From: Paramacrobiotus metropolitanus
Taxonomy: Eukaryota > Tardigrada > Eutardigrada > Parachela > Macrobiotidae
Direction: 5' to 3'
Length of the DNA: 64,000 bases
NCBI RefSeq assembly: GCF_019649055.1
Contig: NW_026570293.1
Span: 62,001 to 126,000, forward strand
The translations under genes were made by a program, and so were the position numbers. This document shows, piece by piece, positions 24,623 to 29,654 of the stretch. Every line of letters starts with the position of its first letter. Position 1 is the first letter of the stretch. The notes below the pieces were generated by a model. The model was given only the letters and a program-made list of their open reading frames with translations, did not search any database and was not told where the DNA came from.

Positions 24623-27600
24623 ATGGCCGCCGCGGGTGATGCGCAGCGGAACGGTCCCTCCCCGAACGAAGGCAGCCGTGTGGCTCCCTGCGGACTGAGT
24701 CGCGAAGAGCTGATCCAGCGCGGCGAAGGCCTGACCTACAACGACTTCATCCTGCTGCCCGGCTTCATCGACTTCGCCGCCGAGATCGTGGAGACCAAGA
24801 GCCCGCTGACGCGCCGTATTACGCTCAACACCCCGCTGGTCTCCTCGCCCATGGACACCGTCACCGAGTCAGAAATGGCCATCGCCATGGCGGTACGCTG
24901 ATAAAAATAAATCTTCTGGAATCTAGTAATTCTTCAGGTCCCAGGAAATACCTTATCCATTGTAAAATAGATCCAGAATCGATGCGGAATAATGAAATAT
25001 TTATTTTTAATTATGGAACCATACGTACGGCTTAGGATCTGCGTAGGTTTGCTTAGGCCGCTTATGAATTTTAAAGTCTGAAAAATGTGAAAATTTAAAA
25101 AAATTTTCTTATTATTTTAAAAAAATTACTTCAACAATTACTTTTAACAGATAAAATTTAAAAATGAATTGATTCAATAAATAAATAATAAAATCGGTTT
25201 ATTAACTAAACAGATCGAGTTTTTAAATAAATTTTTTGAGTATATTTTTGTTCCTATTCGTTGTTTTCGAATTAAGCTTGTTTGCTTGTTGTTTTGCCTT
25301 TTCATGGTTGCAGTTATAATGCCGCGTAGAAAGAGGCACAGAGGCATCATTTTGGGTGGCAAATTGAGTCGTTCGTAGAAATCTTTGCGCCTTTTTGCCT
25401 CACTTTCTTGTTGCGGGTGTTAGAGTGATTGTGAGTGCCGTTATCCGCTGATAGAGCCTTATCTGATACGTCGTAATTAGCGGAAACGGGGAAGAGTAGA
25501 GACGCGATTGTGTTGGCTGCGCTTGCGACCCGGCAGTCAGATAAGCTTTGCCTGTCCGCGGTCGAATCTGTCAACAAAATGCTCGTGCATGATTAGGTTA
25601 TCTTCGATGCCGAACAGTTCCAGGCCGTGTTAACGCGGTGCAGAATTTTCCCGTTATTATTGAAAGACTAATTAAATTAATACATTTCCGCCCGATTTTC
25701 GAAGAGGTAACATTAACAAAATAAATATAAAATAGTGATTTATTCATCAAATAATGAAACAGGAAATTTAAATTTATTTAAAGTCAGGTAATTTAAATAT
25801 ATTTAAAACGGAGTATAATAAAATTCGCAGTCACACGTAAAGCTGGAATAAAACGAAAAAATTAAAAAAATAAATTAAATTTGGAAAAAAATGCTAAATA
25901 AAAACTGGTAAAAACAAATGGAATAAAGTTGTGAATATAAATATACTGCAAGTTAGTAAAATACATATTTGAGTTTGACGAACCGGTGTGATGAAGTGAT
26001 GGTCTCCCTCTGCTGAACAATCACCCAAGAAATCCCGTGTTGTGTAGACAGTTTCTGACCGGTTGACGATTTGTGTAAACTAAAATGCAGTGGCAAATAA
26101 AATCAATAAATGTTTGTTAGAAAATAAATTAAATCATAGTTTAGTCGGAATCAGTGTAGAGCTGTGTGAAAAGATGGTCGAATATGTGTGCAGTTGAACG
26201 GCGGGATCGGGATAATACACCACAACTGCACGGCGGAATTCCAGGCCAACGAGGTGTTCAAGGTGAAGCGCTGGCAGCAGGGCTTCATCATCAATCCCCT
26301 GGTGATGTCCCCCGACGAGACGGTGTCGGCCGTGCTGGACATTAAGCGGCAGCGCGGCTTCTCCGGCGTCCCCGTCACCACTGACGGCAATCTGGGCAGC
26401 GAACTCCTCGGCATCGTTACCAGCCGCGACATCGACTTCATTCCCGAGGGATCCCACCAGACCACCAAACTCCGCGACGTCATGACGAAATTCGACGATC
26501 TGGTTATTGCGAACTACGGTAAAATACCCTCTCCTGTAGTTCACATAGAAATAAAACGGGAAATTGAAATTTAGAAAAAATTGGAGAACGTTAAGACTGC
26601 AGTTTAATCAATCTCCGATTAATAAACGTGAAAATTTCACATTTAATTGAATTAAAAATGATAAAAAAGAAATTCTTTTATTGCTGGAGGAAGTTTGAAT
26701 AAAACTGAAGACGTCAAAAATTAAATTCATTCGTATTCCAGAAAATAAAAGGAGAAACTTCAAATTTAATTAATTAAAAAGTTATAAAGAGGGATTAATT
26801 CCTCCATTTAATTAAAGGAAAATTTTTAATATATAACTGAAATTAAAAACGATAAAAATTGATTACAGTAGTTTCTTTCTAGGGAAATAATATGGATTGA
26901 TTTGAATAAGTTTGATTTGAAATAATATTCCGAGCATTAAAAATTAACATACTGTATGGTAATTTAACAAAGCAAATTCAGTTACAGTATTCAGTGAAAA
27001 CGGGACACATTGGTTCCTTAAGTAAGCTGGAAAATAATAAGTTTATCCGAAAAGTACAACATTATAAACTGCAACATTTCCATAACGTTTCCGCCGATTT
27101 GGTGCACCGGTTTGATGTCGTAATGGTCTCCCTCTGCTGAACAATCACCCAAGAAATCTCCGTGTTGTCTGGACTATTTCTGACCGGTTTTTTTTTATTA
27201 ATGTTTTTATTAACTAATTCAGTTGAAAACATTTCCCATCGTTTTATATCGCTAATAGTTCCTAATTCGGTAGGGGTGTCGTTGCGGGACGCTCAGGATA
27301 AGTTGCGGCAGAGTAAGAAGGGCAAGCTGCCCATCGTGGACGACAAACGCACCCTGGTGTCGATTATGGCGCGGACGGATTTGAAGAAGCGTGGGAACTA
27401 TCCCTTCGCCACGCTGGACGAGACGGGACAGTTGCGTGTCGGCGCGGCCATCGGGACGCGCGACAGCGACAAGGAGCGGCTGAAGCTGCTGGTGGACGCC
27501 GGGCTGGACTGCGTGGTGATCGACTCGTCGCAGGGCAACTCTATTTATCAAATATCCATGCTCAAGTACATCAAGCAGACCTACCCGCAGCTCCAGGTCA

Positions 27601-29654
27601 TTGCTGGCAACGGTAAGCCAGATTAATTTACAATTTTTCTGATTTCTTTTTACGAGTTTTTTCGGTTTCTTTTTACGATTTTTCTATGATTTTTTCGATT
27701 TTCATACGATTTCTTTTTGCGATTTTTTCGATTTGTTTTATGGATGGTCAAGAGTTAAAATATTTATTTTGCATTAAATTGTAATATTTTAAATAGTTTT
27801 ATTTTCTTATGAACGGAAATAAGCCGAGAAATGACGAGTATAATAAATTATGGTTGTGATAAAATAGAATGAATTTTAATTGAAATCTTGTAATAAATAT
27901 AGTTATTCAATTTAGTTAGAACAAGAACAGTAAAAACGTGTTTTTGCTGGCGTCCGGTATGATGAAGTAACGGTCTCCCTCTGCAGAAATCACCCAAGAA
28001 ATCTCATGTTGTGCAGACTGTTTCTGACTGGTTGATGATTTATTGATAAGTTTTGTCCAGTAATACATATTTAATTTGTCGATAATTTCTGAATTATTTA
28101 AGATTATCCCTTTTAATGCGGTAGCGTTAAGTAGCGCATTTATAGAATTATACTTATGGTCAGTTGATCGAATTTCTTCTGTTGAATAGTGGTGACGCAG
28201 GCGCAAGCGGCCAACCTGATCGCGGCCGGCGCGGATGCGCTGCGTGTGGGCATGGGCAGCGGATCCATCTGTATTACTCAAGAAGGTACTGGCTGATAAA
28301 TTGTTAATTTATTTGATTGTCCATTGATTAATGATGAAATGTTCCTGGTTGAACAGTGATGGCCGTGGGCCGTGCGCAGGGCACCGCCGTGTACAACGTG
28401 GCCAAGTACGCCGCCGGCCACGGCGTCCCCATCATCGCCGACGGCGGCATCTCCTCCATCGGGCACATTATGAAGGCGCTGTCGCTGGGCGCATCCTGTG
28501 GTAAGGAAATTAATTACTCGCACTACCTGGCGGGCGATCTCTACACGCATAGAATGCAGTTATAACATGAGAGCCTTTTCTTGTCCGAATATTAAAGGTA
28601 ACACAAATGTGGTGTTATCGTAGTGCAGTGGTTGCTGTCCATGTCGCATGTGGAACAGTACTGTTGTTGACCTAGTAAACAAGTCATTGGGCAGTGTTAT
28701 TGTGGTATGAATATTTTTCCCAACGTCCGACATGATGACGTAACGGTCTCCCTCTGCTGAACATTCACCCGAGAAACCTCCGTGTTGTAACAGACTGCGT
28801 CTGACCGGTTGACTAAAAATGATACGCTGCCTTAGTGAATTGTTTATTTGATTGATTTTTCTTTTTTTACGTTTATTCAATAACTTAGTAACCATGGTAA
28901 AGTTTTTTTAAAAAAAAATCCGACAAATAAAGTAAAAAAACATTTAAAACATTTACTAATTTACTCATTAATTTATTATCTGTAAACACTCTTTGAAAAT
29001 TGGAAATATAAATGAAAAGCAATCTGGATCTTTCCAAAATCCGTTTCAGATTAAAAACAATTCCAGAAAATTCTGCAGACCCAATAACGAAGTAATCTGT
29101 AACGGTAGTATGTGTGTATTACCTTACTCACTGCTTTATTAATTAAGAGAAAAAATCGGAAGAACAAATAAAAAAAAATTAGAAACATTCAAGAAAATTC
29201 TTGGAAAATCATTCCTAATTTCCTAATGTGAGCATGTGTGTAATGCGTTGCAGTGATGATGGGCGGCCTACTGGCCGGGACGAGCGAGACCCCCGGGGAG
29301 TACTTCTTCCACGAGGGCGTCCGTCTGAAGAAGTACCGCGGCATGGGCTCGCTGGACGCCATGGAGCAGAAGTCCGGCACCGGCGGCGACCGCTACCTCA
29401 TGGGCAACCACGTCAACATCAAGGTGGCCCAGGGCGTCTCCGGCAGCGTCATGGACAAGGGCTCCATCCACAAGTTCCTCCCGTATTTAACCAACGGGGT
29501 GCGCTACGGCCTGCAGGATGTCGGCGCGCGCTCCGTGGAGGAGTTCCGCCGCTGGGCGGACAACGGCCAGCTGCGGTTTGAACGCCGCTCCCCCGCGGCG
29601 CAATACGAAGGTGGCGTGCATGGGCTGCACTCGTACGAGAAGCGGTTGTTCTGA
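24623..29654 (+). CDS. IMPDH: Inosine-5'-monophosphate dehydrogenase, 6 exons, 524 aa
   Basis: IMPDH oxidises IMP to XMP with NAD+, the rate-limiting step of guanine nucleotide synthesis, as a cytosolic tetramer. Exons: 24623-24892, 26194-26518, 27274-27612, 28190-28285, 28357-28500, 29254-29654. All are GT-AG and in phase (1575 nt). The length is close to the ~514 aa of animal IMPDHs. The N-terminus has [12 protein letters not shown], then [17 protein letters not shown]. Exons 2-3 carry the CBS-pair (Bateman) region ([20 protein letters not shown]). Exon 3 has [11 protein letters not shown]. Exon 4 has [12 protein letters not shown] with the catalytic Cys at about residue 339. Exon 5 has [13 protein letters not shown]. 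Exon 6 has the flap [11 protein letters not shown] and [13 protein letters not shown]. Key residues look intact. Introns 1, 2, 3 and 5 host snoRNA-like elements; intron 4 is only 71 bp. Confidence 0.97.
25981..26064 (+). ncRNA. Intron-hosted C/D-box snoRNA-like element, copy 1 (IMPDH intron 1)
   Basis: C box TGATGA (25989-25994) and D box CTGA (26055-26058) are closed by a 6-bp terminal stem (AACCGG 25981-25986 with CCGGTT 26059-26064). An internal CTGA (within CTGCTGAACA) is a D' candidate. The core GGTCTCCCTCTG, then AATCACCCAAGAAATC, is shared with three other introns of the same gene. The D box lies about 135 nt from the 3' splice site. Size and layout match metazoan C/D snoRNAs, which guide rRNA 2'-O-methylation. 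Confidence 0.7.
27105..27189 (+). ncRNA. Intron-hosted C/D-box snoRNA-like element, copy 2 (IMPDH intron 2)
   Basis: C box TGATGT (27113-27118, one change from consensus), D box CTGA (27180-27183) and terminal stem ACCGGT/ACCGGT. The central core is identical to copy 1 over GGTCTCCCTCTGCTGAACAA and beyond. The D box lies ~90 nt from the acceptor at 27273. Confidence 0.7.
27953..28033 (+). ncRNA. Intron-hosted C/D-box snoRNA-like element, copy 3 (IMPDH intron 3)
   Basis: C box TGATGA (27960-27965), D box CTGA (28024-28027) and stem CCGGT/ACTGG with one G-U pair. The internal D' is degenerate (CAGA instead of CTGA). The core GGTCTCCCTCTG and ATCACCCAAGAAATC is kept, while the stretch before the D box differs from the other copies. 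Confidence 0.65.
28722..28810 (+). ncRNA. Intron-hosted C/D-box snoRNA-like element, copy 4 (IMPDH intron 5)
   Basis: C box TGATGA (28733-28738), internal CTGA, and D box CTGA (28801-28804). The terminal stem is weaker: AAC and part of GTCCG against CCGGTT. The core GGTCTCCCTCTGCTGAACA is conserved. The element lies ~450 nt from the acceptor, further than in the other copies, so it may be less well processed. Confidence 0.6.

What the first reader, a model, noticed from the sequence alone, without database searches (positions are those of the whole stretch)
25981..28810. Four paralogous C/D-snoRNA-like elements, one in each long intron of IMPDH
Introns 1, 2, 3 and 5 each contain one sense-strand copy of an ~84-nt element with C box, D box, paired ends and a strictly conserved core (GGTCTCCCTCTG, then ATCACCCAAGAAAT). 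Intron 4 (71 bp) is too short to hold one. The flanking intron DNA is not conserved, so selection or recent copying is confined to the element. Metazoan C/D snoRNAs are normally intron-hosted in housekeeping genes, so a one-per-intron array from local duplication fits. The conserved core before D' contains an 8-nt complement (CTCCCTCT) to the universally conserved AGAGGGAG stretch of 18S rRNA. The region before the D box varies between copies, so the second guide may have diverged.
Basis: partly seen in the sequence, partly recalled or inferred. Interest (0 to 1): 0.78.

Follow-up and report, generated by a model that had tools for sequence, protein, structure and literature searches.

The report
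Four SNORD100-like snoRNAs in IMPDH introns
Four similar copies of a small guide RNA gene sit one per long intron of a tardigrade's IMPDH gene and most likely direct a known, ancient chemical mark on ribosomal RNA; the kind of arrangement is familiar, the host gene appears to be new.

Summary
Four sense-strand elements (82-86 nt, 81-89% identical) lie in introns 1, 2, 3 and 5 of an intact six-exon IMPDH gene; intron 4 (71 bp) has none; flanks are not alike. All four have a D box and the invariant GGTCTCCCTCTG; three of four have an exact C box. A genome-wide pattern (C box, guide, D') and a DNA search each find only these four, so they do not look like mobile-element copies. By the D'+5 rule CTCCCTCT points at the 18S G that lies 26 nt before the U14-guided C, the position of human G436, the target of SNORD100. 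SNORD100 is also the best Rfam family for all four, though far below threshold (19.9-23.6 bits, cut-off 58); three clear U14 copies in this genome also miss theirs (about 33 of 64). In sponges and vertebrates SNORD100 sits in RPS12; the RPS12 gene here has introns but no such element. Best reading: SNORD100 moved to IMPDH and was copied between introns, as U14 was in hsc70: a new member of a known kind. Expression and methylation are untested, 28S could not be read, and the second guide has no clear target.

The parts
25981..26064 (+). Copy 1 (intron 1): C/D snoRNA, SNORD100-like; C box GTGATGA 25988-25994, guide CTCCCTCT 26004-26011, D' CTGA 26013-26016, D CTGA 26055-26058
27105..27189 (+). 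Copy 2 (intron 2): C box TTGATGT 27112-27118, guide 27128-27135, D' CTGA 27137-27140, D CTGA 27180-27183
27952..28033 (+). Copy 3 (intron 3): C box ATGATGA 27959-27965, guide 27975-27982, D' CAGA 27984-27987, D CTGA 28024-28027
28725..28810 (+). Copy 4 (intron 5): C box ATGATGA 28732-28738, guide 28748-28755, D' CTGA 28757-28760, D CTGA 28801-28804
24623..29654 (+). Host gene IMPDH; exons 24623-24892, 26194-26518, 27274-27612, 28190-28285, 28357-28500, 29254-29654
28286..28356 (+). Intron 4 (71 bp), no element

Best explanation
The four elements are intron-encoded box C/D snoRNA genes of the SNORD100 type. Mechanism, inferred from the class: IMPDH pre-mRNA is spliced, the debranched introns are trimmed up to the C/D core proteins bound on the C/D motif and terminal stem, and each RNA guides 2'-O-methylation of the 18S G equivalent to human G436 through the guide before D'. 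The guide forms eight Watson-Crick pairs, then a bulged U and two G-C pairs. The gene left its usual host RPS12 at some point in this lineage, settled in IMPDH and was copied from intron to intron; selection kept the guide and the D box while the flanks drifted. Shown here: anatomy, register, only four copies found in the genome, none found in RPS12. Inferred: expression, processing, methylation, orthology and direction of the move.
For: SNORD100 (RF00609) is the best Rfam family at each of the four places (4227 families). The guide's fifth nucleotide before D' pairs with 18S G at fragment position 387, 26 nt before the C of ACATC; U14 copies found in this genome point at that C by the same rule (read). 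Human Gm436 and Cm462 (PMC3511168, table passage) and chicken G397 and C423 (PMC2653536, table passage) are also 26 apart. C box + guide + D' occurs 4 times in 169.8 Mb, all here (reversed-pattern control 1); a DNA search gives the same four (counts are lower bounds). Invariant guide with unlike flanks. Precedent: three U14 copies in hsc70 introns (PMC7277114, passage), intragenic duplication in chicken (PMC2653536, passages). SNORD100 lies in RPS12 from sponges to vertebrates, and was not found there in animals with heavy intron loss (PMC3412847, passages); in the RPS12 gene of this genome no element was found.
Against: No RNA evidence. Rfam scores (19.9-23.6) are far below the cut-off of 58. 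Over the genome the SNORD100 model lists two other places at 23.4 and 22.6 bits and not these four (61 of 6082 candidates scored); one of them (L014) has TGATGA followed by GGCTCCATCTAC, one mismatch from the SNORD100 guide, but no CTGA in the 300 nt viewed. So the score alone is not specific. Eight contiguous pairs is short: shuffled guides reach eight or more somewhere in 18S in 385 of 2000 trials. The terminal stem shows no covariation and is weak in copies 3 and 4 (-4.5 and -5.4 against -9.6 and -11.2 kcal/mol). Of the two assembled 18S copies that span the target, one (L016) has it intact and one (L023) has a one-base deletion in it. No clear C' box.
Confidence: 0.85

Rival explanations
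1. They are C/D snoRNAs, but not orthologues of SNORD100: an unrelated C/D RNA gained the same guide, or the main target is another RNA such as 28S.
For: Weak Rfam scores and non-RPS12 host; contiguous guide only 8 bp; a second 18S place pairs over 8 with 7 WC and one G-U, directly at D'; 28S not readable.
Against: All four copies align to SNORD100 end to end with C box, guide, D' and D in place; the register falls exactly on the known site.
Confidence: 0.1
2. Some copies are pseudogenes: one or two elements make the snoRNA and the others are decaying duplicates. This does not exclude the best explanation for the rest.
For: Copy 2 C box has two departures, copy 3 D' is CAGA, copy 4 end pairs 4 of 6.
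Against: Guide and D box are invariant in 4 of 4 although copies differ by 11-19% in pairs.
Confidence: 0.25
3. A short mobile element or repeat that happens to carry C/D-like boxes.
For: Four copies close together; unlike flanks.
Against: No fifth copy found in the genome, one copy per long intron, same strand, no shared flank.
Confidence: 0.02
4. A cis-acting intronic regulator of IMPDH (splicing or purine-sensing RNA), not a trans-acting guide.
For: One copy per long intron of one metabolic gene; a conserved middle segment (ATCACCCAAGAAAT) without assigned role.
Against: Boxes and guide register explain the conserved parts better; no fold more stable than shuffles.
Confidence: 0.03

Closest known systems
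SNORD100 / HBII-429 (Rfam RF00609, clan CL00073)
   Same: C box, D' guide with CUCCCUCU, D' and D in place; target 18S G436, helix h13 (PMC3412847 and PMC12288042, passages)
   Different: Host is IMPDH, not RPS12; four copies; a U inserted in the guide (GGUCUCCCUCU against GGCUCCCUCU); score below the Rfam cut-off
U14 (SNORD14) copies in hsc70/HSPA8 introns
   Same: Paralogous C/D snoRNAs in several introns of one protein-coding gene (PMC7277114, passage; chicken introns 5, 6, 8 in PMC2653536, table passage)
   Different: Other guide, other host
Plant snoR30 (Rfam RF00046, clan CL00073; Gm390 in Arabidopsis)
   Same: Same clan and paired with human HBII-429/Gm436 in a table of PMC3511168 (passage; that table also lists HBII-429 beside other sites)
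   Different: Not compared by sequence here

Membership tests
Box C/D snoRNA | C box RUGAUGA near the 5' end | tested here: met
   3 of 4 exact; copy 2 has UUGAUGU
Box C/D snoRNA | D box CUGA near the 3' end | tested here: met
   4 of 4
Box C/D snoRNA | Terminal stem joining the ends | tested here: inconclusive
   20 of 24 cells pair against 0-54% of cells when slid, but no compensatory change
Box C/D snoRNA | Antisense element ending next to D or D', modifying the 5th nucleotide | tested here: met
   D' guide: 8 WC pairs, one nucleotide from D', same site in 4 of 4. D guide: at most 6 contiguous WC pairs in 18S or 5.8S in each of 4 copies; mixed runs up to 8 with 5-7 WC and G-U, not the same site across copies. 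28S not tested
Box C/D snoRNA | C' box | tested here: inconclusive
   no clear RUGAUGA after D' in any of the 4 (alignment, by eye)
Box C/D snoRNA | Stable RNA bound by fibrillarin, Nop56/58 and 15.5K | not testable with these tools
   no RNA data held
SNORD100 (RF00609) | D' guide for the 18S G436-equivalent | tested here: met
   26-nt spacing to the U14-guided C
SNORD100 (RF00609) | Rfam gathering score of 58 bits (a curated cut-off, not a biological feature) | tested here: not met
   19.9-23.6 bits; three U14 copies here also miss theirs, 32.7-33.6 of 64
SNORD100 (RF00609) | Host RPS12 (usual, not defining) | tested here: not met
   RPS12 gene found, no element found in it

The most novel reading that the evidence does not exclude
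The guide for 18S Gm436, seemingly unused in Drosophila, was kept in tardigrades by moving from RPS12 to IMPDH and being multiplied to four, so that GTP supply and the dose of this ribosomal mark rise and fall with one transcript; if so, IMPDH induction after stress or rehydration would change ribosome modification.
Probability: 0.08. Interest if true: 0.5.

Novelty: new member of a known kind. Interest (0 to 1): 0.33.

Why it matters
It extends SNORD100, and by inference the 18S Gm436 site, to a tardigrade, in a group (Ecdysozoa) where the fly appears to lack the site, and offers a clear case of a snoRNA changing host gene and spreading intron by intron. Searches of the held library for this: tardigrade + snoRNA listed 1 paper and tardigrade + small nucleolar RNA listed 1, neither on tardigrade snoRNAs by title; snoRNA + host gene + IMP dehydrogenase listed 0; snoRNA + IMPDH + intron + host gene listed 4, none on IMPDH as a snoRNA host by title. 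None of these six was opened.

Tried and rejected
Rfam at curated cut-offs on the whole window: no match. RF00609 over the genome: two other places, both below the cut-off, 61 of 6082 candidates scored, and the control genomes (bacteria and archaea by name) rang in 12 of 14 below the cut-off, so uninformative. RF00016 over the genome found nothing, nothing rang in the controls and the tool warns this does not show absence; a typed U14 motif then found three clear copies, so such family searches miss tardigrade snoRNAs. A middle segment CCGTGTTG (8 nt in copies 2 and 4, 10 nt with neighbours in copy 1, not in copy 3) is complementary to a conserved 18S stretch, but it is 12-13 nt from the D box, and shuffles of the copy 1 segment reach 10 or more in 9 of 300 and 8 or more in 102 of 300: not accepted as a guide. 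Coding on the antisense strand: indels of 1 and 2 nt between copies change frame; rejected. Second-guide search in 28S could not be done (28S not readable). Of the other four exact GGTCTCCCTCTG places (8 forward and reverse in all, reversed control 6), two (L001, L008) were looked at and lack the anatomy; the other two were not viewed, but none of the four carries the C box + guide + D' pattern. Of the 26 U14-motif places (reversed control 7), ten were viewed.

Full report
What is there. The gene at 24623-29654 (+) encodes a complete IMP dehydrogenase in six exons. Introns 1, 2, 3 and 5 (1301, 755, 577 and 753 bp) each hold one element of 82-86 nt in the sense strand; intron 4 is 71 bp and holds none. 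The copies are 81.0-89.3% identical in pairs, with indels of 1 and 2 nt. The longest invariant stretch is GGTCTCCCTCTG; the D box is invariant; ATCACCCAAGAAAT is exact in 3 of 4. Distances from element end to the 3' splice site are 129, 84, 156 and 443 nt (from coordinates). Flanks (200 nt upstream; 130 nt downstream, 75 for copy 2) are no more alike than shuffles in 12 of 12 comparisons.

Is it more than chance? Yes. A covariance model of the four finds only them in the window. In the 169.8-Mb genome the DNA search returns the same four places and no other (the tool states counts are lower bounds), and TGATG-N(5-20)-CTCCCTCTNCNGA occurs four times, all here, against one for the reversed control.

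What family? At curated cut-offs Rfam gives nothing. At relaxed threshold SNORD100 is the best family at each of the four, over its whole length, with C box, guide, D' and D in register, at 23.6, 22.8, 22.1 and 19.9 bits (E 0.089 to 1; cut-off 58). The four are not independent of each other, and over the genome the same model lists two other places at 23.4 and 22.6 bits. As a yardstick, the U14 guide-plus-D motif was sought in the genome: among ten of 26 places viewed, three look like U14 genes, SNORD14 is Rfam's match there, and it gives them 32.7-33.6 bits against a cut-off of 64. Scores below the cut-off are therefore what clear U14 genes get in this genome, though the SNORD100 scores here are lower still.

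What does it point at? Own 18S (L016) holds CCGGAGAGGGAGCC. CTCCCTCT pairs with AGAGGGAG, one nucleotide from D', in 4 of 4 copies; with a bulged U the pairing extends by two G-C pairs (-18.4 kcal/mol; -22.1 for the guide of the SNORD100 consensus). The fifth nucleotide before D' pairs with G at fragment position 387, 26 nt before the C at which the U14 copies of this genome point by the same rule. Human Gm436 and Cm462 are 26 apart (PMC3511168, table passage; that table also sets HBII-429 beside other sites), chicken G397 and C423 too (PMC2653536, table passage); SNORD100 is given as the guide of G436 (PMC3412847 passages; PMC12288042 table passage, helix h13). Shuffled guides find eight or more pairs somewhere in 18S in 385 of 2000 trials, so eight pairs alone are weak; for a uniform random guide the chance of eight pairs in this register at any of 41 methylated sites (that number is recalled) is about 6e-4. 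The guide before D has at most 6 contiguous Watson-Crick pairs in 18S and 5.8S in each copy; counting G-U, runs of up to 8 (5 to 7 Watson-Crick) appear, at different places in different copies, so no second target is proposed. 28S could not be read in the held genome. Of two assembled 18S copies that span the target, one has a one-base deletion in it.

Host change. SNORD100 lies in RPS12 from sponges to vertebrates and was not found there in animals with heavy intron loss; D. melanogaster and C. elegans were among those examined (PMC3412847, passages). The RPS12 gene of this genome was found by three matching stretches (73-86% identical to the human protein). A full-model scan of that locus gives no match better than 9.4 bits, relaxed Rfam gives none up to E=1, and the one TGATG-to-CTGA pair seen starts in an exon and lacks the guide. 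So the snoRNA was not found in its usual host and is present four times in IMPDH. Hoeppner and Poole describe snoRNAs as free to move among broadly expressed hosts (PMC3511168, abstract and passages). In Drosophila S2 cells human 18S is said to have unique peaks of this mark in the region 99-436 (PMC13228274, section on rRNA), which suggests but does not state that the fly lacks the site.

How it works. Inferred from the class: splicing, trimming to the snoRNP, methylation of the 18S G. Four copies may raise dose; departures in copies 2 (C box), 3 (D') and 4 (terminal stem) leave room for some being weak. Whether IMPDH as host has meaning (GTP supply and ribosome making) is speculation.

Species. 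The genome size (169.8 Mb, 533 contigs held) fits Paramacrobiotus sp. TYO (170.5 Mb, 684 contigs; PMC8277472, passages) and the reported 170 Mbp of P. metropolitanus (PMC11191345, passage); this is an inference.

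Noticed in passing
L029/L038 (G000:C2, about 3132100-3133190) and L034/L039 (G000:C5, about 2902650): Three U14 (SNORD14) genes, two of them 973 bp apart in a stretch with other sub-threshold C/D hits and no open frame over 130 aa on that strand in 9 kb, perhaps a non-coding snoRNA host gene.
   Followed up: partly
26033-26042 (copy 1), shorter in copies 2 and 4: TCCCGTGTTG in copy 1 (CCGTGTTG in copies 2 and 4) is complementary to the conserved 18S stretch CAACACGGGA but not in register with the D box.
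   Followed up: partly
copies 1-4, middle segment ATCACCCAAGAAAT: Conserved segment between D' and D (exact in 3 of 4) with no assigned role; not a clear C' box.
   Followed up: partly
L016, L023, L024 (18S copies): Assembled 18S copies are partial or carry single-base indels, one of them inside the guide's target.
   Followed up: no
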